Positions 1,217-6,319 of a stretch of 6,319 nucleotides of DNA are shown piece by piece; positions within the stretch are counted from its first letter, which is position 1, and every line of letters starts with the position of its first letter. The notes under the pieces are model-generated. The model had not been told where the DNA came from. It made no database searches and worked only from the letters and a program-made list of their open reading frames with translations. The DNA lies in the NCBI GenBank assembly GCA_030628225.1, contig DAOVRJ010000148.1:1-6319 (forward strand), read 5' to 3'. This DNA is from Candidatus Zixiibacteriota bacterium (lineage in GTDB: Bacteria > SM23-81). The translations under genes were made by a program, and so were the position numbers.

Positions 1217-3328
1217 ATGGCCAAGGAGTTATTGTTGGAAATCGGCACAGAGGAGCTGCCCCCCGGCTACATCGCCCCGGCTTTGCAGAACCTTGGGGCC
1301 GCTGCCGAGATGGCCCTGAAGGAGGCCCGCATTCACTTTGCCGGGGTGGAGACATGGGGGACCCCGCGGAGGCTGGTCCTGCGTGTGACCGGGATGGCCG
1401 AGATGCAGACCGATCTGGTCCAGGAACAGCAGGGGCCGGCCAAGTCCGTGGCGTTCGACAAACAGGGACACCCCACCAAGGCGGCCCAGGGCTTTGCCCG
1501 GGGCCGGGGGCTCTCGGTGGAGGATCTGCTGATCAAACAGACCCCGCGGGGAGAGTATGTCTTCGCCAAGGTGCTCACCTCGGGGCGTCCCGCCGCGGAG
1601 ATCCTGGCCACCCTCTTGCCGGAGTTGATTCACGACCTGCCCTTTGCCAAATCCATGCGCTGGGGCACTGACGAGTTGCGCTTCGCTCGTCCCATCCGCT
1701 GGCTCCTGGCTTTGCTGGGAAGCCAGATCATCCCCTTCTCCCTGGGGGAAGTTCAATCTGCCGACAAGACTTTTGGCCACCGGCAGCTGAGCCCGGGCCC
1801 CTTTCGAGTAGCCTCGGCCGGTGCCTACTCGAAGGTGTTGGCCAAGACGGGGATCATCGTGGATCAGAGGACCAGAGAGAAGATCATCCGGGACGGCTTA
1901 AAGAAAGCGGCGGCGGCCGAGGGTGGCCAGCCGTTGCCCGACGAGGATCTCCTGGAGACGGTCACCTATCTGGTGGAGCTTCCCACGGCCCTCTGCGGCC
2001 GCTTCGACAAGCGCTATCTTTCTCTGCCCCGGGAGGTGTTGATCACCGCCATGTCGGAGCACCAGAAGTACTTCGCCGTGGTAGACGAGAAAGACAGGCT
2101 TCTGCCCCTGTTTCTGGCTGTCAGCAACGGCGATCCCCAGTGCCGGGAGCTGATCCTGGCCGGCCAGCAGAGGGTTCTGGCGGCCCGCCTGGAGGACGCC
2201 AAATTTTTCTTCGAGGAGGACGGCAAGGTTCCCCTGGCCGATAAGGTGGACATGCTAAAAGAGGTGGTCTTTCAGAAGAGCCTGGGGACCCTCTTGCAGA
2301 AAACAAAGCGCATCGAGGCTCTGGTGGATCACCTGTCCGAAATTCTGGATCTCTCCGCGGCCGATAGCCGCGACGCCCGCCGGGCCGCCCGGTTGTGCAA
2401 GGCCGATCTGGTTAGCCACATGGTCGGCGAGAAGGAGTTCTCCAAGCTGCAGGGGTACATGGGACAGCAGTATGCCCTGGCTTCCGGCGAGCCGCAGCCG
2501 GTGGCCGTGGCCATCTTTGAGCACTATCTGCCCCGCTTTGCCGAGGACCGGCTGCCCGAATCTCTTCCCGGCTCCATGGTGGCCATCGCCGACAAGCTGG
2601 ATACCATCGCCGGCTGCTTTGGGGTGGGGCTGATCCCCACCGGCTCGCAGGATCCCTATGCCCTCCGTCGCGGGGCCCTGGGTGTGATCAGAATTCTCCT
2701 GGGCAGTGAGCTGCACATCGATCTGCACCGGCTGGTGGACAGAGCCCTGGATCTTTTGGTGGATAAGTTGAAGGGAGATCGGGCAGAAGTACGGGAGGGG
2801 ATATTGACTTTTTTCCGGCAGCGGATGGAGAGTCAGCTATTTGAGGCAGGCCTGGATCAGGATGTGACCGATGCGGTGCTCACAGCCGATGAGCGGGATG
2901 TTGTGGACGCCCTGGGACGCGGCCGGGCTTTACAGGAGCTGCGCACACAGAAGCAATTCCAGGCGCTGGTTCAGGGCTCCAAGAGGGTGGCCAACATCCT
3001 TCGCCATCAGACCATCAGCGGCAAGCCGGACCCGGCCCTGTTTCGAGGAGAGGCCGAGAGCGAGTTGTTCCGCTGTGCCCAGGTTGCCGGAAAGAGAATA
3101 ACGGAGAGCCTTAAGGCTCGAGCATATGCCTCGGCCCTGAAGGCCACCCTAAAATTGGTGGAGCCAATCGATGCCTTCTTCGAGCAGATTTTGGTTATGG
3201 ACAAGGACCAGCAGCTCAGGGAGAATCGTCTGCGGCTTCTGGCCCTGGTTGGGGAGGATTTCCTGGCCATGGCCGACTACGCCAGGATTGTGATCAGGGG
3301 AGAAGCGGATTCCGCTAAGTCAGGATAA
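1217..3328 (+). CDS. glyS: Glycine--tRNA ligase beta subunit
   Basis: GlyS is the tRNA-binding partner of GlyQ in the alpha2beta2 glycyl-tRNA synthetase. The 703-residue product has normal family length and begins with the diagnostic AKELLLEIGTEELPP. Further family blocks are FAKSMRWG and RFARPIRWLLALLG (about 142-167), EHQKYFAV (about 280), NGDP, and RVLAARLEDAKFFFEED (about 319-335). The HD-like domain segment KADLVSHMVGEKEFSKLQGY with DPYALRR downstream is present (about 395-490). The DALR-type anticodon-binding end appears in FFEQILVMDKDQQLRENRL (about 653-671). The ATG at 1217 has GAGGTGA four bases upstream (1206-1212). The gene lies 58 bp after glyQ, so co-transcription is likely. No terminator follows the stop. 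Instead, a sigma-54-type promoter for the next gene starts within 10 bp, so activator-binding DNA for that promoter would lie inside the 3' end of glyS. Confidence 0.98.
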   Translation: MAKELLLEIGTEELPPGYIAPALQNLGAAAEMALKEARIHFAGVETWGTPRRLVLRVTGMAEMQTDLVQEQQGPAKSVAFDKQGHPTKAAQGFARGRGLSVEDLLIKQTPRGEYVFAKVLTSGRPAAEILATLLPELIHDLPFAKSMRWGTDELRFARPIRWLLALLGSQIIPFSLGEVQSADKTFGHRQLSPGPFRVASAGAYSKVLAKTGIIVDQRTREKIIRDGLKKAAAAEGGQPLPDEDLLETVTYLVELPTALCGRFDKRYLSLPREVLITAMSEHQKYFAVVDEKDRLLPLFLAVSNGDPQCRELILAGQQRVLAARLEDAKFFFEEDGKVPLADKVDMLKEVVFQKSLGTLLQKTKRIEALVDHLSEILDLSAADSRDARRAARLCKADLVSHMVGEKEFSKLQGYMGQQYALASGEPQPVAVAIFEHYLPRFAEDRLPESLPGSMVAIADKLDTIAGCFGVGLIPTGSQDPYALRRGALGVIRILLGSELHIDLHRLVDRALDLLVDKLKGDRAEVREGILTFFRQRMESQLFEAGLDQDVTDAVLTADERDVVDALGRGRALQELRTQKQFQALVQGSKRVANILRHQTISGKPDPALFRGEAESELFRCAQVAGKRITESLKARAYASALKATLKLVEPIDAFFEQILVMDKDQQLRENRLRLLALVGEDFLAMADYARIVIRGEADSAKSG
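3304..3316. repeat. Palindrome AGCGGA-T-TCCGCT in the glyS 3' end
   Basis: A perfect 6-bp inverted repeat with one central base lies in the last codons of glyS. It sits about 30 bp upstream of the sigma-54 -24 GG. It could be an operator or activator half-site, but it is rather close for a classical sigma-54 enhancer (usually about 80-150 bp upstream). No second copy was found upstream of the other sigma-54 site. It may simply reflect coding sequence. Confidence 0.3.
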
Positions 3329-3336
3329 AGAGATGG

Positions 3337-3353
3337 TTGGCACAGACATTGCT
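3337..3353 (+). promoter_or_regulatory. Sigma-54 (RpoN) -24/-12 promoter upstream of the T9SS protein gene
   Basis: TTGGCAC-AGACA-TTGCT matches the sigma-54 consensus YTGGCACGNNNNTTGCW at every defined base except the G after TGGCAC. The invariant GG (3339-3340) and GC (3351-3352) are separated by exactly 10 bp. The expected start is about 3364, giving a leader of about 240 nt before ATG 3606. It lies 8 bp after the glyS stop codon, on the same strand as the gene it would serve. Such promoters need an AAA+ enhancer-binding protein; none is encoded here. Whether it is active is unknown. Confidence 0.65.
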
Positions 3354-3388
3354 TTACCTATAGTATAAAGAAACCGGTCTATTTGTGT

Positions 3389-3402
3389 TTGACAAAAATA
3401 AA
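3389..3402 (+). promoter_or_regulatory. Degenerate FNR-like half-palindrome with A-tract
   Basis: TTGAC-AAAA-ATAAA has the same left half-site as the two tandem boxes at 5536-5570 but a poorer right half (8 of 10 positions of TTGAT-N4-ATCAA). It is followed by a long A-rich run up to 3415, immediately upstream of the -35 at 3419. The A-tract could act as an UP element that contacts RNA polymerase alpha subunits. The FNR-like reading is weak on its own. Confidence 0.25.
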
Positions 3403-3414
3403 AAAAATAAAAAA

Positions 3415-3433
3415 AGGCTTGACAAAAAAGCCT
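3415..3433. repeat. Inverted repeat AGGCTT/AAGCCT over the -35 box
   Basis: AGGCTT (3415-3420) and AAGCCT (3428-3433) are perfect reverse complements separated by 7 bases. The -35 hexamer at 3419-3424 lies inside them. A symmetrical site here could be a repressor operator. As transcript (from an upstream start such as the sigma-54 promoter) it could form a short hairpin, but without a following U-tract. Confidence 0.4.
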
Positions 3434-3447
3434 AGTTGTGCTAAGAT
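3419..3447 (+). promoter_or_regulatory. Sigma-70-type promoter of the T9SS protein gene
   Basis: A perfect -35 TTGACA (3419-3424), a 17-bp spacer and -10 TAAGAT (3442-3447) form a strong housekeeping-type promoter. The expected start is near 3454, giving a leader of about 150 nt. It resembles the promoter at 5579-5607: both have GCTTGACAAAAA at the -35, the same 17-bp spacer, and GGT directly after the -10. An A-rich UP-like tract lies upstream. Confidence 0.75.
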
Positions 3448-3459
3448 GGTTTGTGGAAC

Positions 3460-3477
3460 GGATGGTATATGTCATCC
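3460..3477 (+). other. Small stem-loop near the 5' end of the leader
   Basis: GGATGG (3460-3465), loop TATATG, TCATCC (3472-3477) form a 6-bp stem with one G-U pair, a few bases after the predicted sigma-70 start. A 5'-end hairpin of this type can stabilise an mRNA. It is short, so formation and role are uncertain. Confidence 0.3.
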
Positions 3478-3510
3478 AGGGTCGTGCTTCCTTAACAGAG
3501 AACTTCAGAG

Positions 3511-3520
3511 AAAGGAGGTG
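3511..3520 (+). promoter_or_regulatory. Extra Shine-Dalgarno-like site inside leader 1
   Basis: AAAGGAGGTG is a long match to the anti-Shine-Dalgarno end of 16S rRNA but lies about 85 nt upstream of the real start codon. The following possible starts are poor: GTG 3519 gives 15 codons and overlaps the site, and TTG 3532 gives a ~22-codon frame that runs into the next Shine-Dalgarno. It could drive a leader peptide or act as a ribosome standby site. The second leader has comparable extra sites. Confidence 0.4.
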
Positions 3521-3586
3521 CGAGAGGAAAGTTGTGTGCAGGAAAGTTATCGATCTGGATATTGATCGTGGATAAAATCTCTTATG

Positions 3587-3597
3587 AAAGGAGGTGA
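3587..3597 (+). promoter_or_regulatory. Ribosome binding site deciding the start at 3606
   Basis: AAAGGAGGTGA gives a 10-base uninterrupted match to the 16S 3' end. It contains the GTG at 3594 that would otherwise be the earliest in-frame start, so that GTG is very unlikely to initiate. The ATG at 3606 lies 8 bases after the site, ideal spacing, and begins directly with the signal peptide KRLLMIGM. Confidence 0.85.
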
Positions 3598-3605
3598 AAA
3601 AGACA

Positions 3606-4910
3606 ATGAAGAGACTTCTAATGATTGGCATGTCGCTGGCTCTGGTTCTGGGACTAGCTGCCGGGTCATCTGCTCAGTTCATTCAGCCTGATGTCAGTGG
3701 TCTCGAGGTGCAGTACCGGACGCAGCAGGTATCGCTGGGTGGTTTGGCTACCAAGGATTCCTGCGATATCTGGTCGGATGAGTGGTTCCCCTGGGACGAT
3801 TGTGAAATGTGGTATTGGGGAGATATACCGATGCCTGTCAGCTTCATGTTCAAGAAGTATCTCGATCCGGACTATGAATACAACAGCTGTCAGTATCCTG
3901 AGAAGCCTATCTTCCCGTTCAATGTGGAGTCCATGCATCTTCTCCTGTGGATACAAGAAGATACCGTGGATGCCATAATCGAGCTGGACATCGAAGAGCC
4001 AGGCGAATGGGATCCGGATATGGGATGCTATTTGCCAGGCACTGTCCTCTGGACGTCGTCGCCCTTCAGCTTGCACATGGAAGTTCCAGCTGGTTACTAC
4101 ACCCTGTATTACTGGGATTTTATCTTCCCAAGCTGGTGGGTGCACGGGCCGTTCTTTATCTCGTGGCATGTGGTCGACGTTCAACCTCCAGATGCGCTGT
4201 GGGGCTGGTGTGCGGATTTGGTTGCTCCCACCCATGGTTGCTCGAACTGGTTGCGCAACCCAGACGACGGCCTCTGGTACAATTGGAATTACCATTATGG
4301 GAAAACCAGCGACTGGATCTTCCGTGCGGATGGGCGTCCTGCGTGGAACGTGGCCGTGGATATGGGCAGCTTCGAGGCTGTGCCCGGCGACCAGATGGTC
4401 ACTCTCAACTGGCAGTCCATGTCCGAGACCAACAACTCCCACTGGATCGTCAAGCGGGATGAGGTGGAGATCGCTCAGCGGGACGGCCAGGGCAACAAGG
4501 AGACGTCCACTGACTACGTCTATGTGGATAGAGATGTGGTCAACGGCGTGACTTACTCCTACACCATCGAGGCCGTCAACTATGAAGGTTTCCCCGATGT
4601 TTATGGACCGGTCACGGCAACTCCTCTGGCTTCCGGTGCTGTTCCGGGCGAGTTCGCGCTGTTGCAGAACTACCCGAACCCGTTTAATGCCAGCACGGTA
4701 ATCCGTTACCAGCTTGCCTCCGACGAGCATGTGACCTTGAAGATTTACAACATCCAGGGTCAGGAGGTGGCGAGCTTGGTCGACGCAGATCAGAAAGCCG
4801 GTATGTACACCGTGAACTGGACGGGCAAGGATGTCAGCAGCGGCATGTACATCTACACCTTGACTGCTGGCGATTTCAGCGACACCAAGAAGATGGTCTT
4901 CCTGAAGTAG
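3606..4910 (+). CDS. Secreted tryptophan-rich protein with FnIII-like region and T9SS type A sorting domain
   Basis: The predicted 434-residue exported protein probably ends on the cell surface or outside. Residues 1-23 form a Sec signal peptide (KR, a hydrophobic LLMIGMSLALVLGLAAG core, cleavage after SSA). Residues about 24-250 are unfamiliar: rich in W, Y, D and P, with six cysteines at about 53, 66, 95, 141, 202 and 212, which could form three disulfides. Residues about 255-342 look fibronectin-III-like (VTLNW, HWIVKRDE, VVNGVTYSYTIEAVN). Residues about 350-434 are a type A T9SS C-terminal sorting domain with LLQNYPNPFN (352-361), LKIYNIQGQEV, SGMYIYTL and a final K-K-M-V-F-L-K. By family knowledge this domain directs export through the type IX system followed by cleavage or anchoring; no T9SS machinery gene is in view. 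An in-frame GTG at 3594 lies within the Shine-Dalgarno and is rejected as start. The gene appears monocistronic, with its own promoters and a strong terminator. The function of the N-terminal domain is unknown. Confidence 0.9.
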   Translation: MKRLLMIGMSLALVLGLAAGSSAQFIQPDVSGLEVQYRTQQVSLGGLATKDSCDIWSDEWFPWDDCEMWYWGDIPMPVSFMFKKYLDPDYEYNSCQYPEKPIFPFNVESMHLLLWIQEDTVDAIIELDIEEPGEWDPDMGCYLPGTVLWTSSPFSLHMEVPAGYYTLYYWDFIFPSWWVHGPFFISWHVVDVQPPDALWGWCADLVAPTHGCSNWLRNPDDGLWYNWNYHYGKTSDWIFRADGRPAWNVAVDMGSFEAVPGDQMVTLNWQSMSETNNSHWIVKRDEVEIAQRDGQGNKETSTDYVYVDRDVVNGVTYSYTIEAVNYEGFPDVYGPVTATPLASGAVPGEFALLQNYPNPFNASTVIRYQLASDEHVTLKIYNIQGQEVASLVDADQKAGMYTVNWTGKDVSSGMYIYTLTAGDFSDTKKMVFLK

Positions 4911-4935
4911 AAAGAGATCATCGTCAGTTGTTATT

Positions 4936-4970
4936 GGTGGCTGGGTGCCTAATCATGGCGCCCAGCCACC
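4936..4970 (+). terminator. Strong hairpin after the T9SS protein gene, lacking a U-tract
   Basis: GGTGGCTGGGTGCC (4936-4949) pairs with GGCGCCCAGCCACC (4957-4970) around loop TAATCAT: 14 base pairs with one U-G. It is followed by GGCAAAACC, not by T residues, so it would not terminate alone. It more likely protects the mRNA 3' end from exonucleases or helps the terminator 3 bp downstream. Confidence 0.65.
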
Positions 4971-4973
4971 GGC

Positions 4974-5010
4974 AAAACCGTTGGGCTTTCGAGCTCAACG
5001 GTTTTTTCTT
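4974..5010 (+). terminator. Rho-independent terminator
   Basis: AAAACCGTTGGGCT (4974-4987), tetraloop TTCG, and AGCTCAACGGTTTT (4992-5005) form a 14-bp stem with one G-U pair, running into TTTTTTCTT. This is a canonical intrinsic terminator located 64 bp after the stop codon at 4910. Its A-rich left arm means it could also work, less well, on the opposite strand. Confidence 0.92.
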
Positions 5011-5437
5011 TCAGGGGGGCATGAATAAAGGCCCTCTTTAAAAAAGAATGCACTTCTCTTCTCGTCCTGCTCCTCTTCGCCCTGTTGATTTATCTACCTG
5101 GGTCAGCCCCGCGGTAGCCTGTTGTTGGGCTCTTTCATCATAACAAATACCAAGTACCGTGACGAATGAGCCTGGGCAAATCCGCAATGACCAGGTATTG
5201 CGCGAAGGCGCTCGTTTTCTCGCCATTAGCTGTGCCCTTTTCAGCCGCAGCTATATTACCGTGCGTATAGTCCAGCTTCTCAGGGGCGGAGAAATGTACA
5301 TCAACGAGGGGGAGTTGAACCCAGCCAGGGAAATTTTCAGGAACATAGCTAGGAAAAGCAGGAGGAAGTACCTCTGAAGGAAGGGTTTTATTGAACTGGA
5401 AGATTAAGAGCCGTGTCGTGGAGATTCACCAGCGCAA
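5011..5437. other. Long intergenic stretch without a convincing gene
   Basis: This ~430-bp stretch lies between the terminator and the second sigma-54 site. No tRNA, rRNA or known riboswitch pattern was recognised. A + strand frame at 5159-5377 (72 codons, or 27 codons from ATG 5294) ends in a charged, helix-like tail with AREIFRNIARKSRRKYL. It lacks a good ribosome site and a recognisable family, so I do not call it a gene; it could be a decayed gene or a small protein. A - strand frame at 5038-5226 has no support. If the sigma-54 site at 5438 is real, enhancer-binding sites should lie in the right part of this stretch, but I saw no clear repeated dyad. Confidence 0.5.
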
Positions 5438-5454
5438 CTGGCATGATCTTTGCG
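5438..5454 (+). promoter_or_regulatory. Second sigma-54 (RpoN)-like -24/-12 promoter
   Basis: CTGGCAT-GATCT-TTGCG matches YTGGCACGNNNNTTGCW except for T in place of the C after TGGCA, and the last base. GG (5440-5441) and GC (5452-5453) are exactly 10 bp apart. The expected start is about 5465, which would give a very long (~435 nt) leader to ATG 5900. It is less perfect than the first site, but it occupies the same relative place upstream of a TTGACA promoter and a secreted-protein gene on the same strand. Confidence 0.5.
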
Positions 5455-5535
5455 TTTGTTTGAAGGAGCAGGCAAGACAAAGGTTTTGAGTCTATGTGCC
5501 AGTATAGATTCTCACGAGGAGCCTTCTGTTTTGGC

Positions 5536-5549
5536 TTGACACACATCAA
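5536..5549. promoter_or_regulatory. FNR/CRP-family-like box 1
   Basis: TTGAC-ACAC-ATCAA matches 9 of 10 defined positions of the FNR-type palindrome TTGAT-N4-ATCAA. Its centre (5542.5) is about 71 bp upstream of the start predicted for the promoter at 5579-5607, a position used in class I activation by this family. The particular regulator (FNR, DNR, FixK-like or another) cannot be told from the site. Confidence 0.45.
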
Positions 5550-5556
5550 AAAAAAC

Positions 5557-5570
5557 TTGACACATATCAA
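5557..5570. promoter_or_regulatory. FNR/CRP-family-like box 2
   Basis: TTGAC-ACAT-ATCAA is nearly identical to box 1 and lies exactly 21 bp downstream of it, two helical turns, so both sites would face the same side of the DNA. A run of A and G-A follows, up to the -35. Its centre is near -50 relative to the predicted start, which is unusual for activation, so repression or use of another start is possible. Confidence 0.45.
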
Positions 5571-5578
5571 AAAAGAGC

Positions 5579-5607
5579 TTGACAAAAATTGGTATTTATG
5601 ATAGAAT
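5579..5607 (+). promoter_or_regulatory. Sigma-70-type promoter of the second secreted-protein gene
   Basis: Perfect -35 TTGACA (5579-5584), 17-bp spacer, -10 TAGAAT (5602-5607, one mismatch to TATAAT), followed by GGT as in the promoter at 3419-3447. The expected start is near 5614, giving a leader of about 285 nt. The -35 hexamer is the third TTGACA in a phased series (5536, 5557, 5579). Confidence 0.75.
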
Positions 5608-5690
5608 GGTATTACAGGGTGAAAGATGACTATTGGTTTTCTTTCTTATCTGCACGCGAAGTTTTCCATTCGTCACGCTAACGATTGATA

Positions 5691-5698
5691 AGGAGGTG
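5691..5698 (+). promoter_or_regulatory. Extra Shine-Dalgarno-like site in leader 2 (first)
   Basis: AGGAGGTG (preceded by A, so AAGGAGGTG) lies about 200 nt before the real start. GTG 5699 is too close and gives six codons. GTG 5712 opens a 45-codon basic frame (to TGA 5847-5849) that starts VRRGFFSLQKAFRKPGKYKF, 15 bases from the site. That frame is a possible leader peptide but has no independent support. Confidence 0.35.
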
Positions 5699-5733
5699 GT
5701 GTATTTCATTCGTGCGTAGAGGTTTCTTTTCAC

Positions 5734-5755
5734 TTCAGAAAGCCTTCAGAAAGCC
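5734..5755. repeat. 11-bp tandem duplication in leader 2
   Basis: TTCAGAAAGCC occurs twice head-to-tail (5734-5744 and 5745-5755). The similar string ACTTCAGAGAAAG precedes the first extra Shine-Dalgarno in leader 1 (about 3503-3515), so part of the motif may be shared between leaders. Its role is unknown; a recent slippage duplication is the simplest explanation. Confidence 0.6.
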
Positions 5756-5811
5756 GGGGAAGTACAAATTCACTATCGTTAATGTAATACAAACTTTAAG
5801 ATGCAAAAAAC

Positions 5812-5822
5812 AAGGAGGTGAT
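5812..5822 (+). promoter_or_regulatory. Extra Shine-Dalgarno-like site in leader 2 (second)
   Basis: AAGGAGGTGAT is an 11-base match to the 16S 3' end, longer than the functional site of the downstream gene. It lies about 80 nt before ATG 5900. The ATG at 5821 overlaps it (MSRER, five codons) and its stop overlaps another ATG at 5835 (four codons, ending in the hairpin at 5841). Neither is a credible protein. Ribosome capture or attenuation is possible. Confidence 0.4.
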
Positions 5823-5840
5823 GAGCCGAGAACGATGACT

Positions 5841-5860
5841 CCGGGCTGAAAACAGCCTGG
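5841..5860 (+). other. Leader hairpin between the internal and true ribosome sites
   Basis: CCGGGCTG (5841-5848), loop AAAA, CAGCCTGG (5853-5860) form an 8-bp stem with one G-U pair. There is no T-tract, so it is not a terminator. It sits between the strong internal Shine-Dalgarno (5812-5822) and the functional one (5889-5895), a suitable place for translational control or a structural spacer. Confidence 0.5.
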
Positions 5861-5899
5861 CCAAGAAGTTAACTATTGACCATCGTTTAGGAGGTCAAG

Positions 5900-6319
5900 A
5901 TGAAAAAGTATTTGATGATCACCGTATTGGCCATGTTTGTTCTTGTTGCCGTCACGGCAGCCTTTGCCGACGGGCCGATACATATGAACATGACCAAGAA
6001 GGAGATGGGCGCCCCCCCCATTCCTTCAAATCTGGCTTCGACCGGTCCGTCGAAGGGCACCATCTGGTACGAGGATTTCGAGGACGAGTGGCCCCTTGGT
6101 CCCTTTCTGCCCGATGGGTGGGGCAACCACATCTTGGGCGATACGCTGAATAACTGGTTCCCGAATGGAGGTTACGGGGCGATCGCGATAGACAGTCTGT
6201 GCTGGTTGCACATAGACGATGATGTGACCACACTCTGCGATGACTGGCTGGTGACTGATACCATCGACGTACCTACCTCCAAAGCCTTTTTGGTTCTGCT
6301 CGACTTCCAGCATTTCGGT
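5900..6319 (+). CDS. Secreted protein with choice-of-anchor J / cleaved-adhesin-like N-terminal domain (partial, runs off the right edge)
   Basis: The frame is open from ATG 5900 to the window end (140 codons). AGGAGGT at 5889-5895 lies four bases before the ATG. Residues 1-23 form a clear Sec signal peptide: KK, hydrophobic LMITVLAMFVLVAVTAAF, cleavage after AFA. After a short linker come YEDFEDEWPLGPFLPDGW (about 56-73) and, further on, DDWLVTDTIDVPTSKAFLVL (about 115-134) followed by DFQHFG. From family knowledge, an acidic 'FE-x-x-FPP-x-GW' start and a later 'DDWL-[IV]-T-x-x-[IV]-D' motif are typical of choice-of-anchor J and cleaved-adhesin jellyroll domains of surface or secreted FCB proteins. 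Such proteins often end in a T9SS sorting domain, but the C-terminus lies beyond the window. The promoter layout resembles that of the T9SS protein gene at 3606, suggesting joint regulation. Confidence 0.85.
   Translation, partial: MKKYLMITVLAMFVLVAVTAAFADGPIHMNMTKKEMGAPPIPSNLASTGPSKGTIWYEDFEDEWPLGPFLPDGWGNHILGDTLNNWFPNGGYGAIAIDSLCWLHIDDDVTTLCDDWLVTDTIDVPTSKAFLVLLDFQHFG

What the first reader, a model, noticed from the sequence alone, without database searches (positions are those of the whole stretch)
3337..5902. Repeated control module: sigma-54 element, then TTGACA promoter, then long leader with spare ribosome sites
Both secreted-protein genes share the same order of elements: a -24/-12 site, an A-rich tract, GCTTGACAAAAA with a 17-bp spacer and a -10 ending in ATGGT or AATGGT, a long leader, one or more extra AAGGAGGTG sites, and finally the true start. 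The glyQS operon has none of this. This suggests a family of cell-surface genes under one combined programme, possibly switching between a sigma-54-dependent state and a basal sigma-70 state with different leader lengths. The sharing is seen in sequence; the regulon is inference.
Basis: partly seen in the sequence, partly recalled or inferred. Interest (0 to 1): 0.7.

Follow-up and report, generated by a model that had tools for sequence, protein, structure and literature searches.

The report
Start-less ribosome sites before secreted genes
In this uncultured bacterium and its nearest relative, a set of genes for exported proteins shares a very strong promoter and a long untranslated leader with an extra ribosome-binding site that has no start codon, probably to protect or pre-load the mRNA; a few of them, including both in the window, also carry a second (sigma-54) promoter.

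Summary
The elements are real and above chance. Both window genes have a sigma-54-type site, then TTGACA-N17-TANNATGGT, then a long leader with extra AAGGAGGTG.

The promoter pattern occurs 9 times in this genome (reversed control 0) and 14 times in the sister genus (control 1). All nine in this genome precede exported-protein genes.

Extra SD sites 65-110 nt before the start occur in 14/78 signal-peptide genes and 0/181 others. In this family they avoid usable start codons (1/19; about 9 expected), so they look like start-less 30S-binding sites of the cry3A STAB-SD type, not upstream ORFs. RNase J, the nuclease of that mechanism, was not found over cut-off in four genomes of the phylum.

The sigma-54 element is genuine (rpoN present; 50 sites vs 11 control) and sits 73-86 bp upstream of TTGACA at three orthologous loci in two genera, including glyQS-T9SS. 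But only 3 of the 9 strict promoters have it upstream, so it is an add-on, not the family's defining switch. The link is to signal peptides, not to T9SS domains.

The switching model is untested. Most likely: a strong sigma-70 promoter plus a ribosome-protected leader for abundant surface proteins, with optional sigma-54 induction at a few genes.

The parts
3338..3352 (+). sigma-54 (-24/-12) site TGGCACAGACATTGC, predicted start about 3364
   Evidence: 0.09 expected; conserved as TGGCATAGATATTGC in the orthologous locus L270; rpoN in the genome
3389..3418 (+). upstream TTGACA copy plus A-tract, UP-element-like
   Evidence: an A-tract next to the -35 recurs upstream of most of these promoters
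3419..3450 (+). sigma-70 promoter TTGACA-17-TAAGAT with extended -10 TGC and GGT after the -10
   Evidence: conserved in L270
3455..3605 (+). predicted leader of about 151 nt of the first secreted-protein gene
   Evidence: inferred start 7 nt after the -10
3511..3520 (+). extra start-less SD AAAGGAGGTG, about 94 nt before the start
   Evidence: no start codon 4-11 nt downstream; same distance in L270
3587..3597 (+). true SD AAAGGAGGTGA of the first secreted-protein gene
   Evidence: conserved in L270
3606..4910 (+). signal-peptide protein with C-terminal T9SS sorting domain (434 aa)
   Evidence: PF18962 and TIGR04183 over cut-off; orthologue 231/420 identical after glyQS in G001
4974..5005 (+). 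intrinsic terminator (14-bp stem) after the first secreted-protein gene
5439..5453 (+). sigma-54 site TGGCATGATCTTTGC, predicted start about 5465
   Evidence: no good counterpart before the second gene in G001 L270
5536..5562 (+). two upstream TTGACA copies (5536-5541, 5557-5562) with A-tracts, 21-22 bp apart
5579..5610 (+). sigma-70 promoter TTGACA-17-TAGAAT with extended -10 TGA and GGT after the -10
5615..5899 (+). predicted leader of about 285 nt of the second secreted-protein gene
5690..5698 (+). first extra SD AAGGAGGTG (about -210)
5812..5820 (+). second extra SD AAGGAGGTG (about -88)
5889..5895 (+). true SD AGGAGGT of the second secreted-protein gene
5900..6319 (+). second secreted-protein gene (signal peptide; cut by the contig end)

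Best explanation
The module drives high expression of abundant exported proteins. A near-consensus sigma-70 promoter (A-tract next to the -35, TTGACA, 17-bp spacer, extended TGn -10, GGT after the -10) gives strong basal transcription. The long leader carries one or two full-length anti-SD matches without a start codon, mostly 65-110 nt before the real start, so a 30S subunit probably parks there without initiating, shields the 5' part of the mRNA and/or keeps ribosomes near the true site. At a few genes an additional sigma-54 promoter 73-140 bp upstream of TTGACA adds an activator-dependent longer transcript that carries the same SD sites. Shown: the elements, their association with signal-peptide genes, their conservation at orthologous loci, the avoidance of start codons. 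Inferred: 30S binding, mRNA protection, actual use of both promoters.
For: Promoter pattern 9 vs 0 control in this genome, 14 vs 1 in the sister genus and near control level in 39 other genomes; all nine here precede exported-protein genes. TGn before the -10 in 28/34 signal-peptide-gene promoters vs 4/13 others, p=0.0014. Extra SD at -65 to -110 in 14/78 signal-peptide vs 0/181 other genes, p=2e-8, reversed control 1 vs 3; none at -30 to -64 in signal-peptide genes. Promoter and extra SD co-occur among signal-peptide genes, p=1.5e-4. Usable start codons after the extra SD 1/19 vs 9.4 expected from shuffles. rpoN found; sigma-54 sites 50 vs 11 control. Composite at three orthologous pairs, TGGCA-to-TTGACA 81/73, 81/81 and 86/84 bp, with alignable sites.
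Against: No transcript, ribosome-profiling or decay data exist. RNase J, the nuclease in the best-studied analogue, was not found over cut-off in four genomes of the phylum; only another beta-CASP/RMMBL protein was seen. Folding predicts many extra SDs to be partly paired; that of the first window gene is almost fully paired. In the more distant G002 a loose SD test shows no enrichment before signal-peptide genes (1/33 vs 4/94), and in the sister genome it is weak (6/38 vs 3/42). Gene starts and signal peptides come from home-made predictors; the -65 to -110 range was set after seeing the data; the sample of contigs was partly chosen by promoter, sigma-54 and T9SS hits (not by SD).
Confidence: 0.5

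Rival explanations
1. The extra SDs serve short upstream ORFs (leader peptides) coupled to the main gene.
For: Short ORFs can be drawn, e.g. a TTG ORF after 3511-3520 that ends in the true SD (read). Start codons occur at chance frequency after extra SDs in other phyla (16/43).
Against: In this family usable starts are depleted (1/19 vs about 9). In the orthologue L270 the only start in range (a TTG) gives a 2-codon ORF; L179 and L282 have no start in range.
Confidence: 0.12
2. One reading: one regulon that switches between sigma-54 and sigma-70 promoters with different leader lengths.
For: rpoN present; composite at four loci here and three in the sister genome, with similar spacing.
Against: Most members of the promoter-leader set have no upstream sigma-54 site. 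Among signal-peptide genes promoter and sigma-54 site are only weakly associated (4/17 vs 4/61, p=0.06) and not in G001.
Confidence: 0.15
3. The leader is a structured regulatory RNA (riboswitch, attenuator or thermosensor) in which the extra SD competes for pairing with the true SD.
For: Predicted pairing of both SDs in several leaders; a possible long-range pairing ATCCAGGRTC/GATCNTGGAT around the extra SD in the first window gene and L270 (by eye).
Against: No Rfam match in nine sources; predicted folds of the window leader and L270 differ; no structure shared by the leaders was established.
Confidence: 0.13
4. The extra SDs are relics of duplicated or decayed upstream genes, or chance purine-rich sequence.
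For: Secreted-protein genes are often duplicated (e.g. paralogous loci in C300 and the six G058 loci).
Against: Strict double-SD pattern 6, 6, 7, 6 vs 0, 0, 0, 1 reversed controls in four genomes; position concentrated at -65 to -110; conserved in orthologues while flanks drift.
Confidence: 0.05

Closest known systems
STAB-SD of Bacillus thuringiensis cry3A (review PMC4113751, citing Agaisse & Lereclus 1996 and Mathy et al. 2007)
   Same: SD-like sequence in the 5' UTR of a highly produced protein, far from the start codon, not directing translation, able to pair with the 16S tail; cry3A too has a longer, minor transcript from further upstream.
   Different: RNase J1, which trims cry3A mRNA up to the 30S, was not found over cut-off in these genomes; here a whole set of exported-protein genes is marked; extra SDs lie tens to hundreds of nt inside the predicted transcript, not at its 5' end.
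Sigma-54 control of exterior functions (Francke et al. 2011, PMC3162934)
   Same: -24/-12 sites upstream of genes for the cell exterior; rpoN present.
   Different: Here a minority of sites is combined with a downstream near-consensus sigma-70 promoter at 73-86 bp; many other sites stand alone.
Tandem sigma-70/sigma-54 promoters such as E. coli glnAp1/glnAp2 (from general knowledge)
   Same: Two sigma classes serve one gene.
   Different: At glnA the sigma-54 promoter is the downstream one; here it is upstream (a downstream one is seen only at C300, L175).
S-layer and cell-wall-protein gene leaders with several promoters or translation starts (e.g. Bacillus brevis cwp; from general knowledge)
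   Same: Long leader, repeated promoter and ribosome-site elements before abundant surface proteins.
   Different: Extra sites here lack start codons and recur at many unlinked genes.

Membership tests
STAB-SD 5' mRNA stabiliser | SD-like sequence in the 5' UTR, far from the start codon | tested here: met
   14/78 signal-peptide genes, -65 to -110
STAB-SD 5' mRNA stabiliser | does not direct translation initiation | tested here: inconclusive
   usable starts depleted, 1/19 vs 9.4 expected, but sequence evidence only
STAB-SD 5' mRNA stabiliser | 5'-3' exonuclease RNase J as the opposing activity | tested here: not met
   TIGR00649 not over cut-off in G000-G003; a beta-CASP/RMMBL protein is present
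STAB-SD 5' mRNA stabiliser | site near the 5' end of the stable transcript; longer mRNA half-life | not testable with these tools
   needs RNA data
sigma-54-dependent promoter | GG-N10-GC (-24/-12) motif above chance | tested here: met
   50 vs 11 control in the genome; 0.09 expected in the window, 2 found
sigma-54-dependent promoter | RpoN encoded in the genome | tested here: met
   PF04552 and PF04963
sigma-54-dependent promoter | enhancer-binding activator and upstream activator site | not tested
   an NtrC-type protein was seen in the sister genome (L302); not searched in G000; no activator site analysed
extended -10 sigma-70 promoter | TTGACA, 17-bp spacer, TGnTANNAT | tested here: met
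T9SS regulon | module preferentially before T9SS-domain genes | tested here: not met
   extra SD 5/30 T9SS vs 9/57 other signal-peptide genes; promoter 7/30 vs 10/57

The most novel reading that the evidence does not exclude
A start-less, full-length anti-SD site about 70-100 nt upstream of the start is a widespread mark of exported-protein mRNAs in several phyla, working as a 30S parking or protection site that does not need RNase J.
Probability: 0.25. Interest if true: 0.75.

Novelty: new variant of a known kind. Interest (0 to 1): 0.5.

Why it matters
If true, export genes in these bacteria (and perhaps elsewhere) can be recognised from DNA alone by a shared leader grammar, and a ribosome-parking or stabilising device known mainly from Bacillus would be shown to serve secreted proteins broadly, in lineages where its known nuclease partner was not found. 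It would also explain why strong surface-protein genes have long leaders with unused ribosome sites.

Tried and rejected
T9SS-specific regulon: tested, no enrichment over other signal-peptide genes. Known regulatory RNA: no Rfam match. Upstream ORF: starts depleted. The C79 site in G001 with the identical 15-mer to the window site is not the orthologue; it precedes an SSB-like gene. Loose extra-SD test in G002 and in 80 glyQ loci from diverse bacteria: no enrichment, so the claim is limited to this family plus strict double-SD cases. The sigma-70-like reading of 3337 (TTGGCA-16-TATAGT) rejected because its -10 is not conserved. One pattern had a wrong gap length and is void. Two paper searches found nothing describing the extra-SD/secretion link.

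Full report
The window is one whole contig (C195) of a 2.34-Mb, 306-contig, 92%-complete genome. It carries glyQ (298-1158), glyS (1217-3328), a signal-peptide protein with a T9SS sorting domain (3606-4910), a strong terminator (4974-5005), and the start of a second signal-peptide gene (5900-end). The assembly's taxon could not be named: no very near record came up in the one genome-contig scan.

Observation. Two TGGCA-N6-TTGC sites (0.09 expected), four AAGGAGGTG (0.07 expected) and two TTGACA-17-TANNATGGT promoters sit in the order described. One of the four AAGGAGGTG is the true SD of the first gene. TTGACA is repeated in tandem upstream of both promoters; the upstream copies lack a -10. 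The A-rich tract abuts the -35 and is best read as an UP-element-like feature (inference); an A-tract next to the -35 recurs before most promoters of this set.

Promoter family. TTGACA-N16-18-TANNATGGT occurs 9 times in the genome and 0 times reversed. Most were read directly and the rest through gene calling; all precede exported-protein genes with leaders of about 140-320 nt (one, L178 +11370, has a mis-called start but a clear signal sequence). In a related genome of another genus of the family (G001) there are 14 vs 1 in the control, while 39 other genomes stay near control level. Promoters with a 17-bp spacer before signal-peptide genes have TGn before the -10 in 28/34 cases, others in 4/13 (p=0.0014); the GG after the -10 is not by itself significant.

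Leader. Among genes with at least 110 nt of free upstream sequence, an extra SD at -65 to -110 is found in 14/78 signal-peptide genes and 0/181 others (p=2e-8); reversed-motif control 1 vs 3. No signal-peptide gene has one at -30 to -64, which fits a bound 30S that must not collide with the initiating ribosome (inference). The extra SD goes with the promoter (9/17 vs 5/61 signal-peptide genes, p=1.5e-4). In this family (plus one G002 gene), start codons 4-11 nt after the extra SD are depleted: 1/19 against 9.4 in shuffles. This speaks against leader peptides and for start-less 30S sites.

Breadth of the leader. A strict pattern AGGAGGTG-N50-80-GGAGG-N4-11-ATGA gives 6, 6, 7 and 6 hits against 0, 0, 0 and 1 control in four genomes of the phylum; nearly all non-coding hits precede signal-peptide genes. 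In 116 genomes of many phyla, hits outside long ORFs are again mostly before signal-peptide genes, among them solute-binding and TonB-type proteins by appearance. The pattern requires ATGA, which favours MK/MR starts, and the loose test in G002 and in 80 diverse loci is negative. I therefore treat the general claim as a lead only.

Sigma-54. The genome encodes RpoN. TGGCA-N6-TTGC occurs 50 times vs 11 in the control; about 30 sites are intergenic, many before signal-peptide genes with a short leader and no sigma-70 promoter. A composite with a downstream sigma-70 promoter is found at four loci: the two window genes, C146 and C9. By arithmetic promoters x 150 bp x 50 sites / 4.68 Mb gives 0.014 expected; three of the nine strict promoters have one. 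In G001, two of 14 strict promoters and one variant have it. Three pairs are orthologous: glyQS-T9SS locus (window and L270, 81 and 73 bp), C146 and L282 (81 and 81 bp), C9 and L320 (86 and 84 bp); alignments show the sigma-54 site, A-tract, promoter and SDs as conserved blocks in drifting sequence. The second window gene's sigma-54 site (140 bp upstream) has no good counterpart in L270. The PWM scan is bimodal: sites are either near perfect or absent. So the element is real but optional.

Mechanism. The best fit is high-output expression of surface proteins: strong basal promoter, leader with start-less ribosome sites, and sigma-54 induction at some genes. The closest known device is the cry3A STAB-SD (PMC4113751). 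A defining part of that mechanism, RNase J, was not found over cut-off in any of four genomes, though a beta-CASP/RMMBL nuclease-like protein exists. I say it works like STAB-SD and do not file it as one. Predicted folding often pairs the extra SD, which remains an open objection.

Limits. Gene starts, signal peptides and transcript starts are predictions by simple scripts; the contig sample (747 kb) was partly chosen by promoter, sigma-54 and T9SS hits; the distance range was chosen after looking. No RNA or protein data were available.

Noticed in passing
L221 (C245) 2997-3159: A 29-bp tandem array (5.7 copies) with TTGACA in several copies, upstream of a small membrane-protein-like ORF; not followed by an obvious -10.
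   Followed up: partly
window 5536-5584; also L195 (C211) 1238-1266: TTGACA repeated every 21-23 bp (about two helical turns) upstream of the active -35; could be activator sites or slippage products.
   Followed up: partly
L353-L358 (G058): Six paralogous loci (signal-peptide proteins) share a very similar leader with AAGGAGGTGAT about 75-80 nt before the start, in a genome outside the window's phylum.
   Followed up: partly
window 3329-3418: No terminator was detected between glyS and the secreted-protein gene: read-through from glyQS is possible; this gene order is conserved in G001 (L270).
   Followed up: no
window 3455-3605; L270 4116-4261: Possible long-range pairing ATCCAGGRTC / GATCNTGGAT around the extra SD in both orthologues.
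   Followed up: partly
L175 (C300), reverse strand, position 5503: A sigma-54-type site lies inside the leader, downstream of the sigma-70 promoter, the reverse of the window's order.
   Followed up: no
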